A stretch of DNA of 40,598 nt from Planctomycetia bacterium. GTDB taxonomy: Bacteria > Planctomycetota > Planctomycetia > Gemmatales > Gemmataceae. How positions within the stretch are numbered: position 1 is the first letter of the stretch; every line of letters begins with the position of its first letter. Made by a program: the position numbers and the translations under genes. The stretch is taken from the NCBI GenBank assembly GCA_005808665.1, contig SYLG01000088.1, forward strand, positions 1 to 40,598, written 5' to 3'. This document shows, piece by piece, positions 2,047-22,114 of this stretch. Below the pieces are notes generated by a model that saw nothing but the letters and a program-made list of their open reading frames with translations, was not told where the DNA came from and ran no database searches.

Positions 2047-3291
2047 TTACGGTCGGGGGCTATTTTCCACAAACTGCAAGGCGGCCTTAATGTAGATCTC
2101 TCCGGTCAGCTCGCCCAGCGAGGTTCGGGTGATGTAGTCGTAGCGTTTGAAGCTTTGCCAATCCTCCTTGGTAAGGATGTAGCCAAAGGCGTCGTTGGTC
2201 AGGCCAAAAAGCAAATTGTGCTGCCCCTTCATTTTACGCTTCAAATAAAAACCAATGTTGGGCAAGGCTTCGCCCGGAATGGTGAGGATTTGAGCGTTAC
2301 CAATGTTCACAAGGTTGACCTGGGTCTCCACGGTTTGAGGGACCTTGGTTTTGTTACCCGAAAACGACGCCAAAAGTTGTCGCATCAGGGGTGAATCCAC
2401 AGGAAGCGATAGGGTAAACGCATCGCAAAACAGCTTTGGATTTTGTTGGGTTTGGGCTTGGGAAACAATCCGCAATGCCTCGTCCGCCAATAGGTGGCCA
2501 ATCCGTTGGCATTCCGCCCAGGTACCAATGTCCTTGCCATTTGGGCCGCGATTGTCTGCAGTAACCATGCCCCCTTGGGCACTGTTCATGAAAATCCCGG
2601 TCCCACCCCCTTTTTCGGCAATTCGGTCGTAAAGAGGGCCGATAAGGTCCGGGCTTATGATGCCCCGGTTTGAACCGATAACCTCGGGATGGATCGCATA
2701 ATTCACCAGGGTGGCAAAGGGTTGGCCCTTTGCGTCCAAGGCTTGGAGAATGTGGCACCTGGGATCGTAGAGTTGTTCGGCATAATAGTTGAAGGCGATT
2801 TTTCCTTTGGCTTCGCCTGTTTGGATTTTGAGTGAGGCGGGTTGGAGTTTGGCAATTGCTTCGTGGATGGACTCGGCCATCAGGTCGCAGACCCGATCGT
2901 GGTACTTCGGTTCAGCGGCGGTCCCGCCCTTTCCATCAGGAAAACCGTAGCAGTCCGGAGCACTGTGGGTGTGGGTGGCCCCGATCAGGATGTTCTTGGG
3001 CAAAATCCCTTTTACCTTGGCCCGGACCCGATTGCCAAGGGTGGCAGGAAAGCCCAGAAAATCCGCGCTTACAAAGGCCACCCGGGTTGACCCTTCTTCG
3101 AAAACCAAAGCCCGAACCTGCAATTCGCCCTCTTTTTTGTCGGTTGGCTTCGAAGGGCCGACACCGCCGGAAACGGGTAAAAGCGGGTCAGGTGTTACAT
3201 TGCGGACAGAAATGCCAGCCCGAAATTCCCCCCGGGTGCTCCCCCCAAAAAACAATAGTCCAAGAGAAAGGACTAAAAAAGATCGTTTCAT
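2047..3291 (-). CDS. Exported neutral/alkaline ceramidase-like protein
   Basis: A 414-residue protein resembling the N-terminal catalytic domain of neutral/alkaline non-lysosomal ceramidase, a zinc amidase, in a form common in planctomycetes. A signal peptide (MKRSFLVLSLGLLFFGGSTRG) occupies about residues 1-21. The domain begins with FRAGISVRNVTPDPLLPVSG and contains IGATHTHSAPDCYG at about residues 102-115, the family's His-rich zinc site; the conserved LVNYAIHPEVIG follows near residue 200. It is shorter than true ceramidases (600-700 residues), as it lacks the C-terminal immunoglobulin-like domain. Many such planctomycete proteins are annotated only as 'ceramidase N-terminal domain', and the true substrate may not be ceramide. 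It is first in a probable two-gene unit with the Tat amidohydrolase. The ATG at 3291 precedes the signal peptide; its ribosome-binding site is weak. Confidence 0.88.
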   Translation of the reverse strand: MKRSFLVLSLGLLFFGGSTRGEFRAGISVRNVTPDPLLPVSGGVGPSKPTDKKEGELQVRALVFEEGSTRVAFVSADFLGFPATLGNRVRAKVKGILPKNILIGATHTHSAPDCYGFPDGKGGTAAEPKYHDRVCDLMAESIHEAIAKLQPASLKIQTGEAKGKIAFNYYAEQLYDPRCHILQALDAKGQPFATLVNYAIHPEVIGSNRGIISPDLIGPLYDRIAEKGGGTGIFMNSAQGGMVTADNRGPNGKDIGTWAECQRIGHLLADEALRIVSQAQTQQNPKLFCDAFTLSLPVDSPLMRQLLASFSGNKTKVPQTVETQVNLVNIGNAQILTIPGEALPNIGFYLKRKMKGQHNLLFGLTNDAFGYILTKEDWQSFKRYDYITRTSLGELTGEIYIKAALQFVENSPRP

Positions 3292-3502
3292 GGTATAAAA
3301 ACCTGCCGGATGGGCAAAGGGTTAATCTTCGGGACCAGAAACCAAAGAAAAGTGACTCTGGTACATGGTAAAGATAACCGGGTGCAGTCCCAAAGAAATC
3401 TGCTCCATTCATTCACAACGAAGGAGAAGGGCCAAACCCTTTGGGTTAGTGCCAAGAGGCTAGGCAAGGACAGGTACTCCCCAAGGCAATCTTCCCAGTT
3501 TG

Positions 3503-3567: not shown

Positions 3568-3714
3568 GTAGGTTTACCACTTTTTCAGTCAAAAAAATTG
3601 ACCTCTCTTTCAACCAGGCAACCGTGTTACACTTCTCCCGCCGAAGGTTATGTCCACAGAAAGGACCTGCCTTGGTTTCTGGTTTGGTTGTTGGCCGGGG
3701 AAGGGAGTCCTCTG

Positions 3715-5331
3715 GTGAACCGGGGTTGGCGGATTCGCCATAAATTGCTTTTGGGGGTCGCACTCTTTGTTGCGATGCTGGTTTTCCTCATTGGTGGCAC
3801 CCTGCAGGGCCTTTGGTCCTATTATCAAACCACCCTGGCGGTAAAAGCTACGGTGTTGGAATTGCGCTATGCAGATATGTTGCGCTCCAGCATTTCCCCG
3901 CTTTTGTCTTGTGTTGCCAATACCCCTGAACCCGATCATGAAGCGATCCGCGACCAATTGCGTCAAAGCCGTCTGAACCTTGGTCTGCTAGGCGTCGCCG
4001 CCCAAGACAACAGCACCTATCAATTAACACCCTCCGACACCAGTTACACCACCCAAATGGTCAGTGTTCTGGAAGCCGACCTGAACGCCATCACCCAAGC
4101 CCAAAACGCCCCATCCACAGTGGATGAAACCCGGGCAAACCTCGCCAAAGCGGTGGCTCGCCTCGACCGGGATAGTACGGATTTACGCGAGAAACTCTAC
4201 GATGACCTCGATTACAGGTTGGCCAAAACGCGTCGCCATTACCAACTGAGCCTTTGGATCATCATTCCAACAAGTCTTTTTGGCCTGCTGCTGACGCTGG
4301 AATTATTGCGGTTTTTCTACGGATGGGTCATTCAACCTGTTCGCGACCTCGAATCAGGCGTCAAACGAATCGCTTCGGGCGACTTCGCTCATCGGATCAA
4401 ACTCAATTCGGGCGATGAAATGCAGGACCTCGCCAGCCAATTCAACGGGATGATGAACCGCCTCCAGGATGTTTACAAGGACCTTGAAAAACAGGTCAAT
4501 GACCGGAGTCGCCAACTTGTCCGCTCGGAACGGCTGGCAAGTGTAGGCTTTCTCGCAGCCGGGGTCTCGCATGAGATCAACAATCCCTTGGCCTCCATCG
4601 CCTTTTGCGCCGAGTCCCTGGAAGGGCGACTCAAGGACCCCGAAGGGTTCTCGATATCCAACAAGGCAACCTTTGAACGCTATTTGCAGATGATCCAGAA
4701 CGAAGCGTTTCGCTGCAAAAAGATAACCGACAAACTCCTCGCCTTTAGCCGTAGCGGTCCAACCACCCGCCAACCGACGGACATAAAGGGAATCATTGAT
4801 GCGGTTAACGAGGTCATTGATCACCTGCCTGCCAAACAGGGAAAAATCATCCGGTTTGACCCACCCCATGAGCCGTTGATAGTAACGGGAAATCCCGAGG
4901 AATTGAAATCGGTGGTGATCAATTTGGCGGTAAACGCCCTGGACAGTATGGACCAGGGCGGCCTTCTCGACATTCAAATTGGTCAAAGCATGAACACAGT
5001 CATCATGCGTTTTACGGACACCGGGTGCGGGATGGACAAGGAATCACTCAACAACATCTTCGAACCTTTCTTTACCCAAAAAAAATCGGGGCGGGGAACC
5101 GGCCTTGGCCTTACCATTTGCCATTGCATCATTCAGGACCATGGTGGAACAATCGAGGTACAAAGCGAAGGTTTGGGTAAAGGGAGTACATTCATCGTGC
5201 GATTGCCCCTAGCCCAAAGCAATGCCTTTCCCAGGCCCATGGCCCAACCAGGTTCGCGGGAGATTCTTGGATTCCCCGAAGTAAACCCATTCCGTGCCAT
5301 TGAAATGGGCACATCCCGGCGTGCCGCCTAA
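3715..5331 (+). CDS. Membrane sensor histidine kinase (HAMP, HisKA, HATPase)
   Basis: Two-component sensor kinase, 538 residues. From this start, TM1 is at about residues 10-33, a periplasmic domain of about 145 residues follows, and TM2 is at about 178-201. A HAMP linker (about 205-260, VIQPVRDLESGVKRI) leads to the dimerisation domain with the phosphoacceptor His at about residue 286 (AAGVSHEINNPLASIAF). The ATPase domain shows the N box (NLAVNALDSM), DTGCGM, FEPFFTQKKSGRGTGLGL and a final glycine box, so it is complete. I chose the GTG at 3715 because GGGAG lies 7 nt upstream and a basic n-region then directly precedes TM1; an in-frame TTG at 3598 gives 39 more residues but lacks a ribosome-binding site. 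The response regulator starts 27 bp downstream, so the two are surely a cognate pair. The signal sensed is unknown; the sensor domain matches nothing I recognise. Confidence 0.93.
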   Translation: MNRGWRIRHKLLLGVALFVAMLVFLIGGTLQGLWSYYQTTLAVKATVLELRYADMLRSSISPLLSCVANTPEPDHEAIRDQLRQSRLNLGLLGVAAQDNSTYQLTPSDTSYTTQMVSVLEADLNAITQAQNAPSTVDETRANLAKAVARLDRDSTDLREKLYDDLDYRLAKTRRHYQLSLWIIIPTSLFGLLLTLELLRFFYGWVIQPVRDLESGVKRIASGDFAHRIKLNSGDEMQDLASQFNGMMNRLQDVYKDLEKQVNDRSRQLVRSERLASVGFLAAGVSHEINNPLASIAFCAESLEGRLKDPEGFSISNKATFERYLQMIQNEAFRCKKITDKLLAFSRSGPTTRQPTDIKGIIDAVNEVIDHLPAKQGKIIRFDPPHEPLIVTGNPEELKSVVINLAVNALDSMDQGGLLDIQIGQSMNTVIMRFTDTGCGMDKESLNNIFEPFFTQKKSGRGTGLGLTICHCIIQDHGGTIEVQSEGLGKGSTFIVRLPLAQSNAFPRPMAQPGSREILGFPEVNPFRAIEMGTSRRAA

Positions 5332-5358
5332 TTGATTTACCCAGGAAGGTAACCTCCT

Positions 5359-6783
5359 ATGAAACCCCTCCGGATTCTCCTTGTTGATGATGAAGCCACC
5401 ATTCAGGAGGTCATGCGTACCGAGTTGAGTCGCCTGGGCCACAAGGTAACCGCTTGTCCCAACGGTCAGGCCGCCATAAAGTCACTGGAAAAGCAGACCT
5501 TTGACGCCGCTGTCCTGGATTTGCGGATGCCCGGAATGTCCGGAATCGAAGTACTCGAACATCTCAAGGCCGTTGCCCCCGACACGGAGGCGGTGGTAAT
5601 GACCGGTCATGCGAGCATGGATACCGCCATCGAAGCGATCCGGTTGGGTGCCATGGATTACATCACCAAACCGGCAAAAATGATGGATATCGAGGCAATC
5701 CTCCTCAAGGTCCAAAGCAAACTGGATCTGAAGAATCAGAATAGTGCCCTCAAAAGTCGGGCCAAAGCCGCGGAAGGGCCTTCGATTCTGGTAGGCAACC
5801 ACCCACAAATGACCCATGTTTTACAGCTCATCGCAACCGTGGCCCCGACCGATTCCCCGGTCCTGATCCTTGGTGAAACAGGAACAGGGAAGGAACTTGC
5901 CGCCCGCACCATTTACATGCAAAGCCGTCGGGCCAACGGCCCTTTCATCCCGGTTAACTGCGGAGCGTTAAGCGAACATCTTGTTGAAAGTGAACTATTC
6001 GGACACAAAAAGGGTGCTTTTACCGGAGCCGACCGCGACCATAAGGGTCTTTTCGAAGTGGCCAACGGTGGCACGCTCCTTCTCGACGAGGTCGGTGAGC
6101 TTTCCAAAAGCCTCCAGGTAAAGCTGTTACGCTTCCTGGAATGTGGGGAAGTCCGGCGTGTCGGTGAAAATGAACCCTTTCAGACAAATGTCCGGGTCCT
6201 TTGTGCCACCAATCGCGATCTAAGGACGATGGTGGCCCGGGATGAGTTTCGCGAAGACCTCTACTTCAGGATCAACGCATTTGAAATCCGGATGCCTCCC
6301 TTAAGGGAGCGTATTTCAGACATTCCGGATCTAGTTTATCATCTACTGGCCAGGGCTTCCAACCGCCCCTTTGAGCAGGTCACCGGGCTCGTCTCCCTGG
6401 AAGCCATGAACGCCCTCATTAACTACCGCTGGAGCGGCAATGTCAGGGAAATGTGGAATGCGATGCAATATGCCTGGGTCATGGCCAATGCGTCGGGAGG
6501 AATGATCCTCCCCGTACACCTTCCGCCCTTTGTTTTCAGTCAACCCCTCCCCATGAACATGGGAAGCCAGAATTTTGGCGGCAATGGCATGCACCAGGCG
6601 CATTCCTTCGATGCCCCCAAGACAGTGACCCTTGAAGAGGTTGAGCGTGACCAGATCCTCAGGGTTTTGGACAAGCACCAGGGAAATAAACCCGCGGTTG
6701 CGGCGGAACTGGGCATCAGTCTCAAAACGCTTTACAACAAACTCAACCGGTATGCCGAATTGGGCCTGGCGGCGGTGGGATAA
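5359..6783 (+). CDS. Sigma-54-dependent response regulator (NtrC family)
   Basis: Enhancer-binding transcription activator of 474 residues with the full NtrC layout. The receiver domain (1-120) has the acidic pair D10/D11, phosphoacceptor D54 (VLDLRMPG) and K104 (YITKPAK). The AAA+ domain has Walker A GETGTGKE at 172-179, the sigma-54-contacting GAFTGA loop at 219-224 and Walker B TLLLDEVGEL at about 239-248. A Fis-type helix-turn-helix lies at about 447-469 (AVAAELGISLKTLYNKL). It should couple phosphorylation by the upstream kinase to ATP-driven opening of sigma-54 promoters. A ribosome-binding site (AGGAAGG with ACCTCCT following) precedes the ATG. No obvious -24/-12 promoter was seen before the neighbouring genes, so its targets are probably elsewhere. 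Confidence 0.96.
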   Translation: MKPLRILLVDDEATIQEVMRTELSRLGHKVTACPNGQAAIKSLEKQTFDAAVLDLRMPGMSGIEVLEHLKAVAPDTEAVVMTGHASMDTAIEAIRLGAMDYITKPAKMMDIEAILLKVQSKLDLKNQNSALKSRAKAAEGPSILVGNHPQMTHVLQLIATVAPTDSPVLILGETGTGKELAARTIYMQSRRANGPFIPVNCGALSEHLVESELFGHKKGAFTGADRDHKGLFEVANGGTLLLDEVGELSKSLQVKLLRFLECGEVRRVGENEPFQTNVRVLCATNRDLRTMVARDEFREDLYFRINAFEIRMPPLRERISDIPDLVYHLLARASNRPFEQVTGLVSLEAMNALINYRWSGNVREMWNAMQYAWVMANASGGMILPVHLPPFVFSQPLPMNMGSQNFGGNGMHQAHSFDAPKTVTLEEVERDQILRVLDKHQGNKPAVAAELGISLKTLYNKLNRYAELGLAAVG

Positions 6784-6826: not shown

Positions 6827-7633
6827 TCAGTCACCCGAAGCAGGTGTCACCAGGGCCCAAAAAAGGGCGGGCGACATTCCCACCGAAACCGTTCGGACCG
6901 AACCATCAAGGAACCCGATGGGAATTTGGGAACCGTGGCAACTCACGGGATTGCCCAAAGGACATATCCCCGGATCAGGCCTCGGATAAAAGGTCACCCC
7001 ATTCGTGGATCCCAGACATTGATTTGTACCAGGTTGGTGAACGGGCATTGCATCCTCCATGAATTGGTAGGCAAAAGAGGCAGGGCGGGTCCCATCGTTT
7101 TCAGGCGTTCCATTCTGTAGCCACACATCAAAGTGCGAATAACGGATAATCGCATATCGTTCCGCAAACCCTATGGTGTTCGAAAGTCCATCGGTGATTG
7201 AGTTAGGAAGGTGGTTTCCGACCTTGTAAGCCAGTGCGTTGAAAGGATAAGAAGTCATGCACCGAATCGTCTCATCCTGCCAATCCGACCTCCAAGTGGG
7301 GTCAGAAGGACACCGCAAAAAGGGGACCTTTGGATAGGTGCTTTTCCATTGATTATTGGGACCGCCCAATTGAAGGTTATTTCCAGTATACTCCAATATC
7401 CCCGGATAGGGTGTCGAGGTAAGGCTTGTGGATAAACCAGTCGGCATTACTGGATTATCCCCGGTCCATAGGGCGTTACCCAGGAGGATCTGCTTCAAAT
7501 GATTTTGGCACCAGATCTGGTTTGCTTTTTGGCGTATTTGCGAAATCGCTCCCAACAGGATACCCATCAAAACCGCAACCAGGGTCAAAACCAAAAGCAT
7601 TTCCAACAGAGTAAATGCATAGCGCATTTTCAT
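6827..7633 (-). CDS. DUF1559-type pseudopilin (prepilin-like N-terminus)
   Basis: A 268-residue type II-secretion-like pseudopilin of the DUF1559 family that is hugely expanded in planctomycetes. The N-terminus is a short basic leader followed by FTLLEMLLVLTLVAVLMG: Phe at +1, Glu at +5 and a long hydrophobic helix, as in proteins cleaved by prepilin peptidase. The residue before the cleavage point is Ala (RYA/F) rather than the usual Gly. The rest is a globular domain containing DGLSNTIGFAERY, a segment typical of DUF1559, and a C-terminal region with CHGSQIPIGFLDGSVRTV, the family's 'H-x-G-G/A-x-N-x-x-F-x-D-G-S-V' ending. Such proteins are assumed to sit in the envelope, but their exact role is not established. 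It follows a small exported protein gene by about 100 bp on the same strand. Confidence 0.92.
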   Translation of the reverse strand: MKMRYAFTLLEMLLVLTLVAVLMGILLGAISQIRQKANQIWCQNHLKQILLGNALWTGDNPVMPTGLSTSLTSTPYPGILEYTGNNLQLGGPNNQWKSTYPKVPFLRCPSDPTWRSDWQDETIRCMTSYPFNALAYKVGNHLPNSITDGLSNTIGFAERYAIIRYSHFDVWLQNGTPENDGTRPASFAYQFMEDAMPVHQPGTNQCLGSTNGVTFYPRPDPGICPLGNPVSCHGSQIPIGFLDGSVRTVSVGMSPALFWALVTPASGD

Positions 7634-8313: not shown

Positions 8314-8985
8314 CTATTTTCGTGCCACAAGGGTCCAGTGCCGGTCGCTGGTCATGGTTACAGATTGGGGATTCAGCCCTGCGAGGTAGGCCATCTCGGC
8401 GGCTTCCTCAAGGGTTAGGGCCGCATGGAGCGAATCCCAAAAAAGTTTTTTCTGGGACACTTCGGCCCTATGGGCATGAAGTTCGACAAGCTGGTCGATT
8501 TCCGACTCTGTCGCCGGACGACACAGGTCCCGAACAAAGATCATTCCCCCCGGGGCACACACCCGGACCATTTCCCATAACGATTGGAGCGGTTCGGGAA
8601 TGTGGTGGATGATGCTGTTGGAAACGACCCCCGCAAACGCCCCGTCTTCAAAGGAGAGCCGTTTGGCATCGCAAAGTTCAAGCCCGATTTGCCCCTCCAG
8701 GCCCAATCGCTTCAGGTGCGCACCGGCTAGATCAAGCATCGAATGTGCCATGTCGATTGCAGTCACATGGAGTCCTGGAACTGCCCCAACCATGGCGATG
8801 GGGATAAGGGCCGTACCTGTCCCCACATCCAGGATTTTGGTCCCGGGAGGGAATGATTCTGTCCCTACCGCCTTGGCCCAATCCTCGACAAAGGCCCGGT
8901 TCACCCCACCATGATCCATCCGGTCATACGCCAAGGATTCGGCCGGATCGTCCATCACCTCGGGTTCCAAAATGCGCGGGATCAC
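8314..8985 (-). CDS. Class I SAM-dependent methyltransferase
   Basis: A 223-residue Rossmann-fold methyltransferase. Motif I is ILDVGTGTALIPIAM at about residues 45-59, then the acidic end of strand 2 (VTAIDMAHSMLDLA), a SAM-contact region near CDAKRLSFEDGAFAGV and the post-motif SNSIIHHIPEPLQSLWEM, all of UbiE/Methyltransf_11 type. The substrate cannot be deduced; it is a soluble cytoplasmic enzyme. It reads divergently from trpS, sharing a 131-bp gap. The first start is a GTG at 8985 with a weak GGCAAG upstream; an ATG at 8955 (MDDPAESLAYDRM) is a fair alternative that would remove 10 residues. Confidence 0.88.
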   Translation of the reverse strand: MIPRILEPEVMDDPAESLAYDRMDHGGVNRAFVEDWAKAVGTESFPPGTKILDVGTGTALIPIAMVGAVPGLHVTAIDMAHSMLDLAGAHLKRLGLEGQIGLELCDAKRLSFEDGAFAGVVSNSIIHHIPEPLQSLWEMVRVCAPGGMIFVRDLCRPATESEIDQLVELHAHRAEVSQKKLFWDSLHAALTLEEAAEMAYLAGLNPQSVTMTSDRHWTLVARK

Positions 8986-9116: not shown

Positions 9117-10124
9117 ATGACAGAACCGAAGGCTCCAAACGGGCCAAAACGCGTGCTTTCGGGGGTGCAACCATCGGGAAAGCTTCACCTTGGTAATTAT
9201 TTCGGAGCTGTTCACCAACACATTGAACTGCAGGAACAGGGCAACGCCTTTTATTTCATTGCCGACTACCACGCCTTGACCACGCTGCAGGACGCTTCCA
9301 AGCTTCGGGAAAATGTGAGGGATGTGGCACTCGATTACCTTGCGCTTGGTTTGGACCCTGACAAAGCCGTTTTTTTCAGGCAATCCGATGTCCCTGAAGT
9401 ATGTGAACTTACCTGGTTTTTGTCTGTGGTGGCCCCGATGGGAATGCTGCAAAAAGCAGTCAGTTTTAAAGAAAAAATTGAAAAGGGAATCGACGCCAGT
9501 GTTGGCCTTTTCAGTTATCCCCTACTAATGGCTGCGGATATTCTCGCCTATCGGTCGCATTTGGTTCCTGTGGGAAAGGATCAGGTCCAACATTTGGAAA
9601 TGACACGGGACCTGGCGGAAAAATTCAACCGGGTTTTCCAGAAAGAGGTTTTTCCCATTCCTGAATATCGGCTCAGCCGGGAAGCAAAAGTTTCGGGGAT
9701 CGACGGTCAGAAAATGAGCAAAAGCTATGGTAACACCATCGAGATCTTTGCCGAGGGCAAGGCTCTCAAAAAGGTTGTGATGTCAATCGTTACCGATAGC
9801 ACGGCAGTGGCCGATGCCAAGGATCCGGACAAATGCAATGTGTACGCCCTTTGGAGCCTGTTTGCCGATGAGGCGGCCAAGGCTCAGATGCGGCAACGCT
9901 ACCTGGCGGGTGGCCTTGGTTATGGAGAAGTAAAAAAAGGACTATTGACCTCGATAGAGTCGTATTTTGAAGCCGCCCGGGACAGGAGGAGGCGGCTCGC
10001 CTCCCATCCTTCCGAGGTCGAGGAGGTCCTCAGGTCCGGTGCTGTCAAGGCACGGGCTGAGGCCAAAATGACCTTGGAACTGGTTCGCGAAGCGGTTGGC
10101 ATGCGTGGGTCACCAATCGCTTAA
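9117..10124 (+). CDS. trpS: Tryptophanyl-tRNA synthetase
   Basis: Class I aminoacyl-tRNA synthetase that charges tRNA-Trp with tryptophan in the cytoplasm, 335 residues, the usual length for bacterial TrpS. The HIGH-type signature is GVQPSGKLHLGNYFGA (HLGN at residues 24-27) and the KMSKS loop is GQKMSKSYGN with KMSKS at residues 199-203. The tryptophan-pocket region includes FYFIADYHALTT and LLMAADILAYRSHLVPVGKDQ. The ATG at 9117 has GGGAG about 11 nt upstream. It stands alone on the plus strand, divergent from a methyltransferase gene. The 11-mer CCGAAGGCTCC occurs both in the leader (9090-9100) and inside codons 4-7 (9126-9136), bracketing the initiation site. Confidence 0.97.
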   Translation: MTEPKAPNGPKRVLSGVQPSGKLHLGNYFGAVHQHIELQEQGNAFYFIADYHALTTLQDASKLRENVRDVALDYLALGLDPDKAVFFRQSDVPEVCELTWFLSVVAPMGMLQKAVSFKEKIEKGIDASVGLFSYPLLMAADILAYRSHLVPVGKDQVQHLEMTRDLAEKFNRVFQKEVFPIPEYRLSREAKVSGIDGQKMSKSYGNTIEIFAEGKALKKVVMSIVTDSTAVADAKDPDKCNVYALWSLFADEAAKAQMRQRYLAGGLGYGEVKKGLLTSIESYFEAARDRRRRLASHPSEVEEVLRSGAVKARAEAKMTLELVREAVGMRGSPIA

Positions 10125-10541: not shown

Positions 10542-12612
10542 TTACGGTTTCCCGTTTAGAATCTTGGCAAACCAACGGCGCAAATCTCCCTCACCCGAAT
10601 GGGTCAACCGGACAAGTGTATCAAATTCGGTTTGGGCACGATCAGGTTGTTGGGTTTGAACCAGACATTCCACCAGGAGTTTGCGGGATTGGACCCCAGC
10701 CGGTTGAGAGGTGATTGCCTGTTCCAGATAAGGGAGTGCTTCGGCAAACTTCCCTTGGGTTTTGAGAATGTCAGCCACCATAACCAGGTGGGTTGCGTTC
10801 TCAGGCGAGATTTCCGCCAACCTCTTCGCCAAAACAAGGGCGCGGGGAAATTTCTTGGCCCGAACCGCGGCCAAGGTGGTTCCCAAAAGGAGGAATTCCT
10901 CCTTCGGTTTGGTTTTGATAATCCTTTCCCAAACCAAAAGGGATTCCGCAAAGCGGCCTTCCCTGGTAAGGCGGTTGGCCTGCCAGGTCCAAAGCTCGAT
11001 ATCACCAGGTCTTTGGGGAAGTAGGTTGTCCAGTTTTTTGGCAAGGAAGCCAGCAAGAGGGTTTTGGGTCGAGGTCATTCCTTGATTCATCAGGGAGAGG
11101 GCGATCACCAGTTCGCGATCTTCCTCCGGGGTGGCAGGCCCCGGAAAGCCAACAAGGGGTAGCTCGCCAGGAAGTAACGAGCGCCCTTGGGCCTCCTCGA
11201 CCGGAGGCTTTCGCCTGATGCGATGGTCGCTAAGAGCGGTGTGGGCAATATCAGCACTGGCCCGACGGGGAAGATGGCAGGCAGCACAGTCATTCTGGCG
11301 CGCAAGGCGGTGCACCAGAGGTTGGGAACAGGGAGGTATAATCCCCCTCGTCGGGTCTGTTTTCCCGGGTGTGGCGACGGTTGTCGCCACACCCACTTTT
11401 GGAAAATCGTTGGCATGGCATTTAAGGCATTGATTCCGGTTCCACTCTTTCCGATCCTTCTCGGGTGGCATGGAATGCGGGTCGTGGCAGGTTATGCAAC
11501 CCAAAGCACCGGCACTTTTCTGAAAGCATTTGCTGGCATGAAGTTGCTCTACTTGGCCTACCGCCAAGTTTTTTTCCCCAAGCACAGGGTTTCGTCCCCA
11601 AACCACCACAAAGTCCGATAGCTTCAAATCGGGCCTCCAGTTTTCCGTTCGTAACCCTTCCTTTTCCACCCGTTTTTCTCCCTGAAGGTGACACTGGTTA
11701 CAAACCGCATCGCGAAGTTCCGGCTCCAACCTGGCCGGATTGACCACAGAAGTATCCGGTGGCTTTTTTTCCTCCCGATTGGGTTCCTTTCCAAAAGCTG
11801 TCGCCGGGTCATCGGCTCTTTCATCACAATGCAATTTCCCGGGACCATGACACCTTTCACAACCGATCCCCAGATTTTTTGCGGCAAATGGTTCATACTT
11901 GTTCTTTGTACCCGCAATCAAGTTCATCCGATTGGTATGGCAAAACAAACAAAGCCTGGTGATGGGTCGGCCGGGGGTTTCCTGGTCGGGTTCCAAACCG
12001 GGGGAAATGTCCCAAAGGCCAACCCCCGAAAACCAACTCATCGAGGTTTGGTAGAGCCACCCATGCTGATCCAGGATATAGGACCTTCCTTCCCCGGTGG
12101 CCAGAACCAATGGCAACGGAGTAATCCACCTCCCTTGTGACAACCGGGCGGGATTTGTTGTCCAGGAAAGATTCGGACTGGTGGAACCCCTTTTCCCCCC
12201 TATTTTCGATCTTATAAGTCACATTCCCATTGGTCACCGAGGTTTGCGATCCTGCATCAAAATGCTCGATGCCCGTTCTCCCGGCAAGGTCAGGTTTGCC
12301 GGAATACGAGGACGACCTCGCCATGGTGTGGGTTCCATGATAGCTGTCGCAGATCCCCTGGTGGCAAACCCGGCAAGCATCATCCCCAACATATTCCACC
12401 CCTGGCCGGACATTGCGCCAAATCACCCCTTTGGCCAACCTCGGGTCCGCCACCTCAACCAACGGAAGACCCTCCACATCCGGGTCCGCCCCAAGGGGGT
12501 CAGGGACATTGGGATTGGGCCCTTTGAAACACCAGAAACAAACAAGGATTCCAAGGGCAAAAGCCACTAATACCGCAATTTTCCAAATGGGGTTTTTCAA
12601 GTTGGCTTCCAT
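10542..12612 (-). pseudogene. Heptahaem cytochrome c with TPR tail, frameshifted
   Basis: Two overlapping frames together make one exported multihaem cytochrome. The 5' frame (from the ATG at 12612; a GTG at 12621 is also possible) has an N-terminal membrane anchor (WKIAVLVAFALGILVCFWCF) and one CxxCH (CRVCH). The 3' frame has six more: CLFCH, CERCH, CNQCH, CITCH, CLKCH and CAACH, followed by about 140 residues of tetratricopeptide repeats. The frames join at SVAIGSGHRG/RSYILDQHGWLYQ; related cytochromes read continuously through a GSG-x-x-GRSY segment. At the join AAGG is present twice in tandem (CCTTCCTT at 12084-12091 on the plus strand), and removing one copy restores GSGHRGRSY exactly. 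The gene is therefore inactivated by a 4-bp duplication, or the base calls are wrong. If intact it would be a periplasmic electron-transfer protein of about 690 residues. It lies downstream of polX on the same strand. Confidence 0.82.
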
Positions 12613-12783: not shown

Positions 12784-14559
12784 TCATCTCTTTCTGTCCT
12801 TTCGGTCCTGGAGGTATTGTTTTACCTCAAGGACTCCCCGTGTGTTGAATACATCCCCGGCCTCGCACCAACCCCTTCTGGCAACCTCCAACCCATAACG
12901 AATATTGGCAATCTCACCGGGGGCGTGGGCATCGGGGTTGATCACCAACAGGATTCCAAGATTCCTGGCCCGCCTTACATGAATCCAATCAAGGTCCAAT
13001 CGCCAGGGATTGGCATTGATCTCGATCATTACCTGATGTTTCAAAGCTGCAGCCAACACCGCATCAAGGTCCACTCCATAGGCGTTTCGCCGAAGCAATA
13101 ACCGACCGGTCGGGTGACCAAGCATCGTTACCGAGGGATGGGATATTGCCTTGATGATCCTCGCCGTCATCACTTCTTTTGGTTGGTTCATAAACATATG
13201 GACGCTAGCGACCACATAATCAAACCCCTCCAACAACGCATCATCAAAATCAAGCGACCCATCCTCCAGGATGTCCACCTCGGTTCCCTTGAAAATGTGG
13301 ATCCCCTCCTGTTTCGCATTAAAGTGATCCACTTCTTTCCATTGATTTTTGACCCGATCCGGGGTCAAGCCATTGGCGATACCCAACGACTGGCTATGGT
13401 CCGCAACACCAAAATACGAAAGTCCCAATTCCCTGGCGGCAAACGCCATCTCCCCGAGGGTTGCGATCCCGTCACTTGCAGTGGTGTGGTTATGAAAAAT
13501 CCCCTTGAGAGCCCCCATGGGGATTAGTTTGGGCAGGCCAATCATTGCCTTTGGGTCTGCGGCATCAATCTCCCCGGTCATCTCCCTCAATTCGGGAGGG
13601 ACAAAAGCAAGTCCAAGGTGGCGATAAATGGATTCTTCGCTGGGACAGTCAAGAGGACCCTCCGGACCAGCAAGTGCATATTCATTGAGTTTGTAACCGG
13701 CCTCGGAGGCAAGGCTCCTGAGGCGCACATTGTGCTCTTTGGATCCTGTAAAATACGCAAGGGCTGGGGCAAAGTTTTCCGGGGCAACCACCCTCAAGTC
13801 TGCACCCAACCGGGAACGGCCAGATAACACCATCGGATTACGGACTTCCAAAACGACGCTGGCTTTGGTTTGCCCCCTTCCGGATATATGAACAACCAGA
13901 GGATGAGCGACAAAAGCGTCCATTACACCTTCGGGATCCACCCCGACGGCCAGGGTGGCAACAATATCAATGTCTTTAACCGTTTCCCGCAACCGCCGGA
14001 GACTTCCCGCAATCTCGATCCGTTGAACCCCTTGGATTTGCCGCAGGGTTTTTACCAGGTCATTGGCCACTTCCAGGGCAACCGGTCGGTGAACCCGACC
14101 TTCGCCTTCCTTCAGGAAGGCAATTCCTTCCAGGATGTTATCTTGTGTCTTTGGACCAAATCCCTTGACCTTGGCGATCCGGTCCTCCTCGCAGGCTTCC
14201 TTGAGGGAAACAAGCGAGGCAATTCCCAACTCCTCGTAAAGAGTCTTAACCTTTTTGGGGCCGATTCCAGGTAGGCTCAACATTTCCAGGAGTCCGGGAG
14301 GGACCTGGCTCCTCAGGATTTCGAGTTCCTCCAAACGGTTGGTCTTGTGCAGGGTTTCGATCTTTGTCAAAAGTGCCTTACCAATCCCGTCAACCTTACC
14401 AAGAGTGCCTTCCGCAATCAGGGTATCCAGGGGCTGGGTCAAGGTTTCCAAAGCCCGGGCTGCTTTGCGGTAGGCATTGATCTTGAAAACATTTTCACCC
14501 CTGAGTTCAAGAAGGGTGGCGATTTCGCCAAGGGCAGCGGCTATTTCATTGGCGTCCAT
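12784..14559 (-). CDS. polX: Family X DNA polymerase / 3'-5' exonuclease (PolX)
   Basis: Repair polymerase of 591 residues, the usual length of bacterial PolX. The N-terminal 8-kDa-like and helix-hairpin-helix regions (about 1-150) include LPGIGPKKVKTLYEELGI and VKGFGPKTQDNILEGI. The nucleotidyltransferase centre is AGSLRRLRETVKDIDIV (about residues 185-201), with the GS motif and the metal-binding DxD. The C-terminal PHP exonuclease domain (about 350-580) has HNHTTASDG, GVADHSQS and later INPDAHAP, giving the metal ligands. It probably fills gaps in base-excision repair. I chose the ATG at 14559 with GAGG 11 nt upstream; a TTG at 14589 would add 10 residues. It follows the UbiA gene by 88 bp on the same strand. 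Confidence 0.96.
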   Translation of the reverse strand: MDANEIAAALGEIATLLELRGENVFKINAYRKAARALETLTQPLDTLIAEGTLGKVDGIGKALLTKIETLHKTNRLEELEILRSQVPPGLLEMLSLPGIGPKKVKTLYEELGIASLVSLKEACEEDRIAKVKGFGPKTQDNILEGIAFLKEGEGRVHRPVALEVANDLVKTLRQIQGVQRIEIAGSLRRLRETVKDIDIVATLAVGVDPEGVMDAFVAHPLVVHISGRGQTKASVVLEVRNPMVLSGRSRLGADLRVVAPENFAPALAYFTGSKEHNVRLRSLASEAGYKLNEYALAGPEGPLDCPSEESIYRHLGLAFVPPELREMTGEIDAADPKAMIGLPKLIPMGALKGIFHNHTTASDGIATLGEMAFAARELGLSYFGVADHSQSLGIANGLTPDRVKNQWKEVDHFNAKQEGIHIFKGTEVDILEDGSLDFDDALLEGFDYVVASVHMFMNQPKEVMTARIIKAISHPSVTMLGHPTGRLLLRRNAYGVDLDAVLAAALKHQVMIEINANPWRLDLDWIHVRRARNLGILLVINPDAHAPGEIANIRYGLEVARRGWCEAGDVFNTRGVLEVKQYLQDRKDRKR

Positions 14560-14647
14560 CTTTTTCAAATCCTCAATACCATTAACCAACCTATTATTTT
14601 GAGTGCCAGACCAGGAATGTTCCTCGTGGAACAGGCACCCAGTTCAA

Positions 14648-15547
14648 CTATCCGGGGTTGACCTGGTGCCAGGCAAGCTGAATGCTAATCACCAGCCACA
14701 AGCCCAAACTTACGCCGATGTTCATCCAAAAGAAAGCCAATTCGATCCGCTTTAATTCCCCCGGTCGAACCAGGAAATGTTCGAAGCAAAGGAGAAGGGC
14801 GACCATGGCCAGCCCAGTCCAATAGATTCCTCCCATTTTGGGTTCCACCAAGGGAAGGAGTGCCAAAAAGACCACCATGATTCCGTGTGAAAGGCCGGCC
14901 AGACGCAAAGCCAAACCTGGACCCAAACGACTGGGTAAGGAAAAAAGGCCCACCTTGCGGTCAAAGGCTTCATCCTGACAGGCATAGATGATATCAAACC
15001 CGGCCACCCAAAAAAGGACTGCAAAGGATAGGATCGAAGGAACAGCAAGCTCTGTCCAAATCTGGTCCCCCCGAATGGCCACCCAAGCCCCGGCTGGGGC
15101 ACAGGCAAGGGCCAAACCCAACCAATAGTGTGCCAGGCTGGTAAACCGTTTGGAAAACGAATACCCCAGGAGCCAAAGGAGGACCGGGACACAAAAATAA
15201 AGCGGATACCAATTGCCAAGGGGCAAGAAAATAAGCGTTCCCAAAACAAAACCAATAGAGGAAAGTCCGACAAACCAGCTGACACTCCTTACAGAGAGTT
15301 GGCCGGAAGGAAGATGGCGAAAGGCAGTTCGGGGATTTTCCGCATCCCACTGGCGATCGATTAACCTGTTAAAGGCCATCGCTGCCGACCGGGCACATCC
15401 CAGACAAACGATGATTCCCAACAGGGTCAAGGGTTCAAATCCTTGCCGATCCCAGGCAATCATGGCGGATGCCAGAGCAAACGGCAGGGCGAAAAGGGTA
15501 TGGCTGAAGCGGATCAATCCTAGCAGTTTTGTGGTCAAATTCGGCAT
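14648..15547 (-). CDS. UbiA-family prenyltransferase (4-hydroxybenzoate polyprenyltransferase-like)
   Basis: An integral membrane prenyltransferase of 299 residues with about eight or nine hydrophobic helices. The first Asp-rich motif is FNRLIDRQWDAENPRT (about residues 59-74), with the NRxxDRxxD signature and the NPRT that follows in this subgroup. The second is YACQDEAFDRKVGLFSLP (about 188-205). It transfers a polyprenyl chain to an aromatic acceptor in quinone biosynthesis. The FSHTLFALPFA start and NPRT match the 'UbiA-like' subgroup that acts in the futalosine menaquinone route (MqnP) in many bacteria without ubiquinone. That assignment is an inference; no other quinone gene is in the window. 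GGGGTG lies 5 nt before the ATG. Confidence 0.92.
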   Translation of the reverse strand: MPNLTTKLLGLIRFSHTLFALPFALASAMIAWDRQGFEPLTLLGIIVCLGCARSAAMAFNRLIDRQWDAENPRTAFRHLPSGQLSVRSVSWFVGLSSIGFVLGTLIFLPLGNWYPLYFCVPVLLWLLGYSFSKRFTSLAHYWLGLALACAPAGAWVAIRGDQIWTELAVPSILSFAVLFWVAGFDIIYACQDEAFDRKVGLFSLPSRLGPGLALRLAGLSHGIMVVFLALLPLVEPKMGGIYWTGLAMVALLLCFEHFLVRPGELKRIELAFFWMNIGVSLGLWLVISIQLAWHQVNPG

Positions 15548-15940: not shown

Positions 15941-17320
15941 ATGAACGGTGTCGACCTGATCAAGGGTGTGGATTTTCTCAACCGGGAAAAAAATATCCCC
16001 CGCGAGCTGATTTTCTCCGGGATCGAAAAAGCCGTTCGTTTGGCAATCTCCAAGAAATACGAAACCGAGGAGGGAATCATTGTCTCGATCAATCGCGAGA
16101 CTGGTGACATCAACGCCCGTTACGGGGATGTTATCCTTACCCCGGACGAATTGGGCCGTATCGCTGCCCAATCGGCCAAGCAGCTAATGATTCAGAATTT
16201 TCGCGAAGCCGAATCGGAAGAAGTTTACAACAAATACAAGGACCGCAAGGGAGACATCGTTTACGCCATCGTCCAGCGGGTCGAACGGGGCCTTGCCCTT
16301 TGCAACCTCGAAGTGGACAAGGCCGAGGCGATCGTTCCCAAAAGTGAACAAATTCCAGGTGAAATGCCACACACCAACGAACGCCTCAAGGCAATCATTC
16401 TGGATGTAAGGCGCACAGGTAACCGGGTCAAGATTGTCCTATCCCGAACCCACCCTGACTTTCTTCGCCGCCTTTTTGAAGAAGAAATCCCCGAAATCCA
16501 GGACCATGTTGTGGAGCTACGGGCGGTTTCCCGAGAAGCTGGCCACCGATCCAAGGTCGCCGTTTCCTCCGTGGATATGAAGGTCGACTGTGTGGGGGCC
16601 TGTTTGGGTACCAAGGGCAATCGCATCAAATCCATCATCGAAGAATTGGGAGGCCAGGAACGGATTGATGTCGTCCGCTGGAATGATTCCCTCCAGGTTC
16701 TCATCGACAACACGCTAAAGCCTGCCAAAGTCGACGAAGTATTCCTTTATGAAAAGCTCGGTCGCGCCATCGTCCTGGTAAAGGATGACCAGCTAAGTCT
16801 GGCCATTGGCCGAAAGGGTCAAAATGTCCGCCTGGCATCGCGGTTGGTAGGTTGGGACATTGAGATCATGACCGAGACGGAATTCACCGGAAGCCTTGAA
16901 AAGGCGGAGGCCTACTTTAACCAAATTCCTGGAATTACCGACGATCTGGTTCAACAATTCATTGAGGCAGGTTGCCTGAGTTATTCCGATCTCGAATGCC
17001 TGGAGCCCGAATACATCGCCGAGCTGGCTGGGATCACGGAAGAAGCCGCCGATGATATGCTCGAGTGGGCAGAGGAAACCGCCCGCACCATGGAGGTTGA
17101 ACCTCGAACCCGCGGCCCAAGGGAAGCCACCCCGGTTCAACCGGTTGACACGGGTGACTACGCCGTGGATGAAGGTCTTTTGGGTGATAGTACGGCTGAA
17201 GAGGCCGAGGTTGCCGAGGTTGTCGTCGATGAAGAACAGCAGGATGCCGTTTCGGATTTCCTAAACACCCCAACCGAAACAGAAACCGGGGCAACTCCTG
17301 AAGGCGAAGTGAAGGAATAG
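15941..17320 (+). CDS. nusA: Transcription termination/antitermination factor NusA
   Basis: RNA-polymerase-bound elongation factor of 459 residues that modulates pausing, termination and antitermination. The N-terminal domain (1-115) starts with a helix containing PRELIFSGIEKAVRLAI. An S1 domain follows (about 120-195, DIVYAIVQRVERGLALCNLE), then KH1 with GHRSKVAVSS and ACLGTKGNRIKSIIEELGG (about 205-240), and KH2 with LSLAIGRKGQNVRLASRL (about 285-305). After a helix-hairpin-helix-like region (320-390) comes an acidic, low-complexity tail of about 60 residues. GAGGG lies 8 nt before the ATG. Neither rimP upstream nor infB downstream is present, so the usual rimP-nusA-infB order is broken; the gene is followed directly by a terminator. 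Confidence 0.96.
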   Translation: MNGVDLIKGVDFLNREKNIPRELIFSGIEKAVRLAISKKYETEEGIIVSINRETGDINARYGDVILTPDELGRIAAQSAKQLMIQNFREAESEEVYNKYKDRKGDIVYAIVQRVERGLALCNLEVDKAEAIVPKSEQIPGEMPHTNERLKAIILDVRRTGNRVKIVLSRTHPDFLRRLFEEEIPEIQDHVVELRAVSREAGHRSKVAVSSVDMKVDCVGACLGTKGNRIKSIIEELGGQERIDVVRWNDSLQVLIDNTLKPAKVDEVFLYEKLGRAIVLVKDDQLSLAIGRKGQNVRLASRLVGWDIEIMTETEFTGSLEKAEAYFNQIPGITDDLVQQFIEAGCLSYSDLECLEPEYIAELAGITEEAADDMLEWAEETARTMEVEPRTRGPREATPVQPVDTGDYAVDEGLLGDSTAEEAEVAEVVVDEEQQDAVSDFLNTPTETETGATPEGEVKE

Positions 17321-17414: not shown

Positions 17415-18191
17415 CTAGAATCCAAATTCGGGGCGCCTTTCGGCAAGTTGGTTCTGAAGCCTTTGAACGATGCTTGAGTGCATCTGGCTCACCCTGGATT
17501 CACTCAGGTCAAGGGTACTCCCGATCTCCTTCATTGTCATGTCCTCATAATAATAGAGGATAATGATAAGGCGTTCATTGCGGTTGAGCCCCCGGGTTAC
17601 CAGGTGCATCAGGTCGCGATTTTGAATCTTGTGGGTGGGATCTTCGGCCTTCTTGTCCTCGATGATATCAATCTCGCGGACATCCTTGTAGCTGTCCGTT
17701 TCATACCATTTTTTGTTGAGGCTGACCTGGGTTACCGCAGTTGCTTCCGCGGCGAGTTTGTTGAACTCTGCCACAGGGAGGTCCATTTTCTTGGCCATTT
17801 CATCAGGCAAAGGTGGGCGACCCAATGACCCTTCGAGTTGTTTGCGGGCAGCTTCCACTTTGCCGGCTTTGCTTCGGACAAGACGGGGAACCCAATCCAT
17901 GGTTCGTAGCTCATCAAGCATTGCCCCGCGGATTCGTGGAACACAGTAGGTCTCAAATTTGACACCCCGTTCCAGGTCGAACGCTTCAATGGCATCCAAC
18001 AGGCCGAAAAGTCCGGAGCTTGACAGGTCGTCCAATTCGACGCCATCAGGCAGCCGGTTCCAGATCCGTTCCGCATTGTAGCGGACCAGACGCAGATATT
18101 TTTCCATCAGAAAGTTGCGTAGTTCGATGGTGGGATTGGCACGATATTCACGCCAAACCTGATTGGTGTCGACTTCAACTTCTGTTTGCAT
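17415..18191 (-). CDS. FliA/WhiG-type RNA polymerase sigma factor
   Basis: Alternative sigma-70 family factor of the FliA/WhiG group, 258 residues, a normal size. Region 2 includes RNFLMEKYLRLVRYNAERIW and DDLSSSGLFGLLDAIEAF with FETYCVPRIRGAMLDELR (about residues 25-95), the group's strong signature. Region 3 (about 105-165) contains LGRPPLPDEMAKKM. Region 4 ends with LNRNERLIIILYYYEDMTMKEIG and LDLSESRVSQMHSSIVQRL, the -35-binding helix-turn-helix. I chose the ATG at 18191, which gives the expected N-terminus (MQTEVEVDTNQVW); an upstream start at 18266 adds 25 residues unlike the family. No flagellar or sporulation gene is nearby and no anti-sigma gene is adjacent, so the regulon is unknown. 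It is convergent with nusA. Confidence 0.94.
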   Translation of the reverse strand: MQTEVEVDTNQVWREYRANPTIELRNFLMEKYLRLVRYNAERIWNRLPDGVELDDLSSSGLFGLLDAIEAFDLERGVKFETYCVPRIRGAMLDELRTMDWVPRLVRSKAGKVEAARKQLEGSLGRPPLPDEMAKKMDLPVAEFNKLAAEATAVTQVSLNKKWYETDSYKDVREIDIIEDKKAEDPTHKIQNRDLMHLVTRGLNRNERLIIILYYYEDMTMKEIGSTLDLSESRVSQMHSSIVQRLQNQLAERRPEFGF

Positions 18192-18856
18192 GCCGCTCGC
18201 CCCCAAGAGCTGGACCGGGAATCCCGGTCCGTTAAAAATGACACTCCAGAGAGGAAAAGAAAACAACCGGATGGGTTACAGACCATGGGTCCAAACCCTT
18301 CTCCGGGAGATTCCCTCCCCCCGGACCACCTGTACCGACGAACCCTTTCGGGAACCCCCCGCCGGTACAGGTTGGCCGAAGCCAAAAAGCCTCAACATGC
18401 CATCTGTCTTCCATGACACCACGGATAAGGAATCCTTGGCATCCACTAATGTCGGGTGTCCCGGTCAGCCTTCTTTAATGAAACCCAAATCGGATCGCAT
18501 TTGAAGAATTTTCAAAAACCCAGGTTCGCCTCCAGCAAAGTCCCCACTTCGCCTGTTGCCAACCGGTTCCTGACCGTTAACCTTCCAATCGGCTTGAATG
18601 AAGCACAATTGCGTCCCCACGCTTTTGGGCTTCCTCAGGTCCGATGGCGGGCAAATAGTGTTTTTCCCGCACCCATGTCAAGTTTGAAATCCTCACAAAA
18701 GGAGAAGATTTTTTTGAAAGAAATGCAAATTCCAACGGATGTGCCGGATATGCCGACAACCCGGGTCAGGGAGTTACGGTAAAGTATGCTGTCTGCTAAA
18801 GACAAAGCCGTGCCCGTTTGGGACAATACGGGGAAACACCCTTGGAGTTCTGTCCC
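18192..18856. other. Gene-poor stretch upstream of the sigma factor
   Basis: About 665 bp in which several overlapping frames exist on both strands, none with a ribosome-binding site and a recognisable product. It must contain the promoter of the sigma factor gene. The AAGGAG at about 18701 is followed only by a 20-codon frame starting at 18723. Nothing is called. Confidence 0.45.
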
Positions 18857-19494: not shown

Positions 19495-19532
19495 TTCCCC
19501 TTGATTTCTTCCGCACCTTGCAAGGCCAACCA

Positions 19533-20522
19533 ATGAGCATCCTCCGCAAACTGGGTCGAAACGGCCCGCAACTTTTCCCGGTCGGTTTCGGGAGTTGGGC
19601 GTTAGGTGGTCAATGGGGTTCCCAGGATGATGGGGAATCGGTCAAGGCCCTCCATCGAGCCCTGGACCTTGGTGTCAACCTGATTGACACCGCCGCAGGC
19701 TATGGGGATGGTCATAGCGAAAGAATCATTGCCAAGGCCCTGTCGGAACGATCCGACAAACCCTTTCTTGCTACCAAGACCCCGCCCTTGCCCGGTCCGT
19801 GGCCACCTTCTCCCTGGTGCCTGGCCCGCGAACGCTATCCGGAAAAATACTTGATTGCCAATGTCGAAGAACGACTCAGGAACCTTGGGGTGGAGCGGAT
19901 CGACCTATTACAACTGCATACCTGGACCAGGGCTTGGAACAGGGACCCCTATCCCCTTGAGGTATTGGCAAAACTCAAAAAGCAGGGCAAGATTGGCTTG
20001 GTCGGCCTTTGTACCCCGGAACAGGACCAAAACTCCGTGATCGGCCCTATGCGGGTTGGCCTGGTCGATGTGGTCCAGGTGATCTTCAACCTTTTTGACC
20101 AGGAGGCTGCCGCAGAAATTTTGCCCGATGCGGCCAGGCAACAAACAGGTATCATCGTCCGGGTCCCCTTGGACGAGGGTTCCCTTTCAGGGAAGTACAC
20201 TGGCCACCACATATTCCCCGACGGGGATTTCAGGACCTCCTTTTTCCAGGGGGATCGGCTCGTCCGCACGGTGGCTCGGGTGGATGCCATCAAGGCGGAC
20301 ATCGCCGAGTTTGACCTTGGGCCAGAATGGACCCTGCCACGGGTTGCCCTCCGCTATGCCTTGGACCAGGCTGGAGTGAGTATCATCATTCCAGGAATGC
20401 GAAACCTGGGCCAGGTAGAGGACAACACCTCGGTGGCCAATTTACCTCCCTTGCCTCCAGAGTTTGCCACCCGGCTTCGCCGCCACAATTGGCTCCGGGG
20501 CGTTTGGTATGGGGGCAAATGA
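19533..20522 (+). CDS. Aldo/keto reductase family oxidoreductase
   Basis: An NAD(P)H-dependent aldo/keto reductase of 329 residues with a TIM-barrel fold. It opens with FPVGFGSWALGGQWG, and the family signature NLIDTAAGYGDGHSERIIAKAL holds catalytic Asp and Tyr (about residues 54-62). The catalytic Lys is in FLATKT (about residue 80). LGVERIDLLQLHTW carries the catalytic His, and the C-terminal nucleotide site includes ALDQAGVSIIIPGMRNLGQVEDN. The substrate is unknown. I chose the ATG at 19533 (MSILRKLGRNG) with AAGG upstream; an in-frame TTG at 19518 adds only five residues. The secreted propeller protein follows after 53 bp on the same strand. Confidence 0.93.
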   Translation: MSILRKLGRNGPQLFPVGFGSWALGGQWGSQDDGESVKALHRALDLGVNLIDTAAGYGDGHSERIIAKALSERSDKPFLATKTPPLPGPWPPSPWCLARERYPEKYLIANVEERLRNLGVERIDLLQLHTWTRAWNRDPYPLEVLAKLKKQGKIGLVGLCTPEQDQNSVIGPMRVGLVDVVQVIFNLFDQEAAAEILPDAARQQTGIIVRVPLDEGSLSGKYTGHHIFPDGDFRTSFFQGDRLVRTVARVDAIKADIAEFDLGPEWTLPRVALRYALDQAGVSIIIPGMRNLGQVEDNTSVANLPPLPPEFATRLRRHNWLRGVWYGGK

Positions 20523-20575: not shown

Positions 20576-21490
20576 ATGGTTTTTCTTTCTTTTTTTTGTC
20601 GTCCCCTGATGGGGCTACCGCTGGTTCTCCTTCTTTCAGGAGGGCTTTTGGCGGAAGAACCGATCTCCCACAGTTTCCTGGCAACAGGCGGTGCCACCTA
20701 CATTCGCTCCCATGATGGGAAAATCACCTGGCAGTTCCCGCATGGTTCCCGCGACGGTGAAGTTTTGGAGGACCGGTCGGTCCTTTTGGCCCTCTCCAAA
20801 AGCAAGGCCCATCCGGGAGGAGCGGCCGCCATTGTTGATCCTTCGGGTAAAATTGCCTTTCTTTACGAAGGGACCCAAACCGAGGTCAACACCGTACAAA
20901 TGCTCAAAAGCGGGGCGATCTTGATGACTGAGGCAGGGGCAAAACCCCGGATTCTTGAAATAAGCCGCGAGGGCAAAATCCTCGCCGAGGTGGCCATCCA
21001 GGCTCAAACCAGGGACCACCATCTGCAATCGCGAATGACCAGAAAGTTGGCAAATGGCAATTATCTTGTGCCCCAATTGCTGGACGAGGTGGTTCGCGAA
21101 TATACTCCCGGTGGAAAAATTGTTTGGGAGGTAAAGACTCCCTATTGGCCTTTTACGGCGATCCGTCTACCCGATGGCAACACCCTGATCGGTTGTACCC
21201 TGAAAGATTTGGTGATCGAGGTCGATTCCATGGGCAAATTGGTTTGGCAGGTCGACAATAGGGATCTGGGAAGTCGCTTGATTAATGACGCCTGCGGGAT
21301 TCAGCGCCTCCCCAATGGCAACACCGTTATCACCAGCCATCATGCCCAAAAAGACGAGGTGCGCCTGGTCGAGGTCAATCGGGACAAAAAGGTGGTTTGG
21401 ACCCACAGGGACCAGGCCAAGCCTGGCATCCACCACTTCCAGATCCTGGACACGAATGGCGTGAAATTATCGAATCAAAAATGGCGGTAA
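20576..21490 (+). CDS. Secreted beta-propeller protein (PQQ-like/arylsulfotransferase-like repeats)
   Basis: A 304-residue exported protein. A signal peptide covers about residues 1-26 (hydrophobic core LMGLPLVLLLSGGLLA). The mature part is made of repeated blades with the pattern 'GKI-W-...-PNGN-T-L-': examples are GKITWQFPHG, REGKILAEV, GGKIVWEV, LPDGNTLIGC, MGKLVWQVDN, LPNGNTVITSH and DKKVVWTH. Repeats with DGNTLI are typical of six-bladed propellers seen in many planctomycete envelope proteins. It has no haem or PQQ-binding residues that I can identify, so an enzymatic role is not supported. AAAGGA lies about 9 nt before the ATG. Confidence 0.85.
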   Translation: MVFLSFFCRPLMGLPLVLLLSGGLLAEEPISHSFLATGGATYIRSHDGKITWQFPHGSRDGEVLEDRSVLLALSKSKAHPGGAAAIVDPSGKIAFLYEGTQTEVNTVQMLKSGAILMTEAGAKPRILEISREGKILAEVAIQAQTRDHHLQSRMTRKLANGNYLVPQLLDEVVREYTPGGKIVWEVKTPYWPFTAIRLPDGNTLIGCTLKDLVIEVDSMGKLVWQVDNRDLGSRLINDACGIQRLPNGNTVITSHHAQKDEVRLVEVNRDKKVVWTHRDQAKPGIHHFQILDTNGVKLSNQKWR

Positions 21491-22080: not shown

Positions 22081-22114
22081 TAAGGATTCCGCAAAGTAGA
22101 CGAAAGGGAAAAGA

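What the first reader, a model, noticed from the sequence alone, without database searches (positions are those of the whole stretch)
10542..12612. Four-base tandem duplication splits a heptahaem cytochrome
The 5' and 3' frames each match parts of one multihaem cytochrome/TPR protein. AAGG is doubled at the junction (12084-12091), and deleting one copy restores GSGHRGRSY, the family's expected sequence. All downstream CxxCH motifs and TPRs are intact, implying a very recent mutation, a phase-variable site or a sequencing error.
Basis: partly seen in the sequence, partly recalled or inferred. Interest (0 to 1): 0.58.

Follow-up and report, generated by a model that had tools for sequence, protein, structure and literature searches.

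The report
Frameshifted heptahaem cytochrome gene, probably recent
In one freshwater planctomycete genome, a gene for a seven-haem electron-transfer protein is knocked out of frame by a four-letter tandem duplication that both of its closest relatives lack: an ordinary, probably very young break, or an assembly error, with no sign of a switch.

Summary
On the minus strand, 12612-10542 is one gene for a membrane-anchored heptahaem c-type cytochrome with C-terminal TPRs. It is split at 12084-12093, where a tetranucleotide occurs 2.5 times in tandem. Both same-genus genomes held have the orthologue intact across this site, with a 4-nt gap against the window exactly there. In 42 of 45 distinct homologous genes, seven or more CXXCH motifs lie in one open frame spanning the site; the other three are two probably end-truncated copies and one distant one. 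Neither half has decayed: dN/dS against the nearest relative is 0.09-0.15, with no clear excess of amino-acid changes. All 15 other syntenic genes compared are in frame.

Best reading: slippage added one unit very recently and inactivated the gene. An assembly error is the main rival and cannot be excluded without reads. Phase variation is not supported: only 2.5 units, and 13 other tetranucleotide runs as long or longer occur in the window. Programmed frameshifting is not supported: no relative has the break, and AGG is not rare and has its own tRNA.

Side finding: a 134-nt stretch around haem 7 is unusually conserved at synonymous sites. Unexplained.

The parts
10542..12612 (-). Frameshifted gene for a membrane-anchored heptahaem c-type cytochrome with C-terminal TPR repeats
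11893..12612 (-). 5' open frame as it stands, ending in about 65 out-of-frame codons after the break
10542..12218 (-). 3' open frame (stop-free stretch); carries haems 2-7 and the TPRs, no export signal seen
12084..12093 (-). 2.5-unit tetranucleotide tandem run; 4-nt surplus relative to both congeners
12526..12588 (-). hydrophobic N-terminal segment, likely uncleaved signal anchor (read by eye, no predictor run)
   Evidence: translation; similar segment in both congeners
12361..12375 (-). CXXCH haem motif 1 (5' frame)
11937..11951 (-). CXXCH haem motif 2 (3' frame)
11847..11861 (-). CXXCH haem motif 3
11688..11702 (-). CXXCH haem motif 4
11484..11498 (-). CXXCH haem motif 5
11415..11429 (-). 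CXXCH haem motif 6
11274..11288 (-). CXXCH haem motif 7
10608..10997 (-). TPR region
11230..11363 (-). block unusually conserved at synonymous sites among the three genus members (side observation)

Best explanation
The gene encodes an exported, membrane-anchored heptahaem c-type cytochrome with a C-terminal TPR domain, probably an electron-transfer protein (function inferred from domains). One strand-slippage event at a short direct repeat added one 4-nt unit, shifted the frame between haems 1 and 2, and so inactivated the gene in the sampled lineage. The 5' product would carry the anchor and one haem and end in about 65 wrong residues. The 3' frame has no export signal, so its six haem sites would not be loaded. 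Shown: two frames of one conserved protein, the 4-nt surplus at the repeat, intactness in relatives, no detectable decay. Inferred: the slippage mechanism, loss of function, and that the sequence is correct.
For: Both congeneric genomes (G001 and G002) are open across the site, with a 4-nt gap exactly at the repeat. 42 of 45 distinct homologous genes carry at least 7 CXXCH motifs in one frame spanning the site. dN/dS window-G002 is 0.093 for the 5' part and 0.126 and 0.150 for two overlapping 3' pieces; eight neighbouring genes give 0.046-0.102. Unique amino-acid changes, window against G002: 6:6, 16:11 and 11:6 (the last two pieces overlap). 15 of 15 other syntenic genes compared are each in one frame. 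The five other matches of the 3' half in this genome lie in four genes, none of which shows a break, so some redundancy is possible.
Against: No reads and no second genome of this species could be examined, so an assembly error predicts the same pattern. dN/dS averages over the whole divergence and would miss a loss confined to the last part of the branch. No expression or protein data exist here.
Confidence: 0.62

Rival explanations
1. Assembly or sequencing error: the real gene is intact and the extra unit was introduced in the consensus.
For: No decay in either half; the genome is a 186-contig assembly; published work finds that many frameshift pseudogenes in public bacterial assemblies are assembly errors, above all at low coverage (PMC11017572, abstract and passages).
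Against: The change is a clean 4-nt tandem duplication, not a homopolymer indel; no other broken gene among 15 syntenic genes; the same paper reports generally fewest such pseudogenes in Illumina assemblies, but the platform here is unknown.
Confidence: 0.3
2. Phase-variable (contingency) locus: unit gain and loss switches the cytochrome off and on.
For: A tetranucleotide unit, slippage-type change, otherwise intact gene.
Against: Only 2.5 units; 14 tetranucleotide runs of 10 nt or more in the window, this one included; no repeat at the site in either congener; mid-gene position, whereas H. influenzae tetranucleotide switches sit at or near the start with two exceptions (PMC2651432).
Confidence: 0.04
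3. Programmed +1 ribosomal frameshifting yields full-length protein.
For: Both frames stay open and under purifying selection; they overlap for about 320 nt; the site is purine-rich.
Against: No other genome examined has the break; no frame-0 stop at the site; AGG is not rare (9.5 per 1000 codons) and has a cognate tRNA-Arg with anticodon CCT.
Confidence: 0.02
4. The two halves are separate functional proteins, the 3' one begun at an internal start.
For: A TTG at 12116 in the 3' frame has an AGGGAGGT stretch upstream.
Against: No signal sequence for a product with six haem motifs; the split would fall inside a predicted beta domain; no homologue was seen to be split there.
Confidence: 0.02

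Closest known systems
Planctomycete heptahaem cytochrome-TPR proteins (unnamed family; orthologues L007/L026 and L008/L027)
   Same: Seven CXXCH motifs with matching spacing, N-terminal anchor, beta region between haems 1 and 2; C-terminal TPRs; 74 to 90% identity to the two congeners
   Different: The window copy is out of frame at 12084-12093
Pfam Cytochrome_C554 (PF13435), Paired_CXXCH_1 (PF09699), TPR families
   Same: PF13435 and PF09699 score over their cut-offs in the 3' half; 14 and 17 of 18 aligned relatives match them at E 0.001
   Different: They cover only parts of the haem region; nothing matched the 5' half
DmsE-family and GSU2203-family decahaem cytochromes (NCBIfam TIGR03508, NF041028)
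   Same: Weak local similarity around haems 2-4 (E 6e-10 and 3e-9)
   Different: 39 and 36 bits against cut-offs of 192 and 325; seven haems, TPR tail: not members
Short-repeat slippage mutations such as the lacI CTGG hotspot (recalled, no call)
   Same: Gain of one tetranucleotide unit shifts the frame
   Different: lacI starts from three units (recalled); the run here is shorter

Membership tests
Heptahaem cytochrome-TPR family | Seven CXXCH motifs in conserved order | tested here: met
   1 in the 5' frame plus 6 in the 3' frame
Heptahaem cytochrome-TPR family | C-terminal TPR repeats | tested here: met
   PF14559, PF13428 and PF07719 above cut-off
Heptahaem cytochrome-TPR family | One continuous open frame | tested here: not met
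   frame change at 12084-12093; so it is a disrupted copy of the family's gene
Pseudogene | Frame broken relative to orthologues | tested here: met
Pseudogene | Relaxed selection or further lesions | tested here: not met
   no further stop or frame change; dN/dS 0.09-0.15
Phase-variable SSR locus | Three or more tetranucleotide units | tested here: not met
   2.5 units; cut-off from PMC2651432
Phase-variable SSR locus | Length variation within the population | not testable with these tools
   one genome per species held; no reads
Programmed +1 frameshift gene | Conservation of the break and shift signal | tested here: not met
   both congeners open across the site

The most novel reading that the evidence does not exclude
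The 4-nt unit is gained and lost within the population, so that cells differ in whether they make this cytochrome: a slippage switch on an electron-transfer protein in a free-living planctomycete.
Probability: 0.04. Interest if true: 0.5.

Novelty: new member of a known kind. Interest (0 to 1): 0.13.

Why it matters
Little beyond this genome: it shows that the annotated split is one disrupted gene, not two, and gives a clean example of a 4-nt duplication at a short direct repeat. If confirmed by reads it marks very recent loss of one of several cytochrome paralogues. If not, it is a caution about calling gene loss from a metagenome-style assembly.

Tried and rejected
Other broken genes in the syntenic part of the window: one apparent frame change near 18250 proved to lie upstream of the start of the gene at 17415-18266, so it was dropped. 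RNA structure in the conserved block: z-scores -0.31 to -1.33 for four folds, not supported. Block as a mobile or repeated piece: one copy in its own genome; among 95 family genomes (own included) it matches only the three genus members plus one weak 47-nt match; no exact match in viral contigs with one 35-nt pattern; no match in plasmids. Structure: the AlphaFold model of the L026 orthologue has mean pLDDT 63.5. Foldseek's 50 listed hits are nearly all TPR proteins (MamA first), which says nothing about the haem part. The search of solved structures with the alignment likewise listed TPR and designed-repeat chains among its 60 rows. Papers: 'multiheme cytochrome' + 'tetratricopeptide' + 'Planctomycetes' gave none; two searches gave no paper on this family by their listings. 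Searches were read as listings, apart from the two papers cited.

Full report
WHAT IS THERE. The window is contig C65 of a 4.48-Mb, 186-contig genome. On the minus strand, 12612-10542 encodes a seven-CXXCH, TPR-tailed cytochrome in two frames. The 5' frame stops at 11895-11893; the 3' frame is open from about 12218 to 10542. At 12084-12093 a tetranucleotide stands 2.5 times in tandem.

IS IT A BREAK? Within about 100 nt of the site the DNA alignment with both congeners has no gap except one of 4 nt, in both relatives, at the repeat. Both relatives read through in one frame. In one search I screened all held loci for frames with at least four CXXCH motifs. After removing the window itself and repeated fetches of the same gene there are 45 distinct genes; 42 have at least seven motifs, including the N-terminal one, in one open frame spanning the site. 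The other three are L006 (4 motifs, a distant match), and L010 and L036 (6 each, both near a contig end, so probably truncated). L028/L053 hold only the 3' part of the G002 gene and were not counted.

HOW YOUNG? Window against G002, dN/dS is 0.093 (5' part, 169 codons), 0.126 and 0.150 (two overlapping 3' pieces, 289 and 273 codons). Eight neighbouring genes give 0.046-0.102. With G001 as outgroup, amino-acid changes unique to the window and to G002 are 6:6, 16:11 and 11:6, a slight excess on the window side; neighbours also vary (for example 19:9 and 15:8 in intact genes, and 5:12 the other way). The cytochrome values are somewhat higher than most neighbours', but so are they between the two intact copies of G002 and G001 where this can be computed (0.103 and 0.190). 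So there is no sign of decay, but a loss in the last part of the branch would not show.

IS THE GENOME ERROR-PRONE? ORFs of G001 and G002 were compared with the window by tblastn. The matched region is window 1.0-23.7 kb. Besides the cytochrome, 15 genes are each matched in one frame: 1031-1990, 2050-3321, 3691-5328, 5353-6780, 8317-8985, 9117-10118, 12790-14574, 14651-15547, 15941-17311, 17415-18266, 19518-20522, 20576-21490, 21631-22179, 22115-23158, 23173-23775 (coordinates). An apparent change near 18250 lies before the start codon of its gene. The rest of the window was not tested for breaks. Reads are not held, so an error at this one site cannot be excluded. Cooley and Wright 2024 (PMC11017572; abstract and passages) show such errors to be common in public assemblies.

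WHAT WOULD IT DO? The 5' product keeps the hydrophobic anchor and haem 1 and then reads about 65 wrong codons. The 3' frame carries haems 2-7 and the TPRs without an export signal (by eye). In the AlphaFold model of the L026 orthologue, of low overall confidence, the break falls in a beta domain between haems 1 and 2. Loss of function is therefore likely (inference). The 3' half has five other matches in this genome, in four genes, none of them broken.

SWITCH OR RECODING? The run has 2.5 units. In H. influenzae the survey cut-off for tetranucleotide repeats is three units, and switches lie near the start with two exceptions (PMC2651432, passages). Fourteen tetranucleotide runs of 10 nt or more occur in the window, this one included, and the octamer itself is not significantly enriched (6 against 2.9 expected). 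For +1 recoding there is no stop at the site, AGG is used 9.5 times per 1000 codons in 13 window regions (one of these included an upstream stretch with a stop), and a tRNA-Arg with anticodon CCT exists (30 of the 45 tRNA matches were given to it). No relative examined has the break.

SIDE OBSERVATION. Within the same gene, 11230-11363 (haem 7) is far more alike among the three species than the rest. Same-amino-acid codons are identical in 36 of 41 against 158 of 322 elsewhere in the 3' part (window-G001), 40 of 43 against 260 of 384 (window-G002) and 34 of 40 against 166 of 333 (G001-G002). The best 30-codon window over 13 gene pieces reaches 0.93 there, the next 0.73, overall 0.47. The block was chosen after looking, so the Fisher values (1e-6, 3e-4, 2e-5) are optimistic; the binomial value for the best window, 8e-8, stays below 0.001 after multiplying by 3197 windows. 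All three pairs are reduced alike, which fits local constraint better than one gene conversion (inference). Two G002 contigs end in it with an exact 149-nt overlap. Its cause is unknown.

VERDICT. Observation confirmed; an ordinary frameshift allele, real with probability about 0.62 and an error with about 0.3.

Noticed in passing
window 11230-11363 (minus strand): Block around haem motif 7 with strongly reduced synonymous divergence among all three genus members; single copy, genus-specific, no clear RNA fold. Unexplained nucleotide-level constraint or local recombination.
   Followed up: partly
L052 and L053 (G002 contigs C30 and C76): The two contigs break inside that same block with an exact 149-nt end overlap, as if the assembler met a shared path there.
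   Followed up: partly
window 6827-7633 (minus strand): DUF1559/N-methylation pilin-like gene with no sense-strand match in the fetched syntenic stretches of G001 or G002: possible insertion or local loss.
   Followed up: no
window 12116 (minus strand): TTG in the 3' frame just upstream of the break with an AGGGAGGT stretch before it; probably chance.
   Followed up: no
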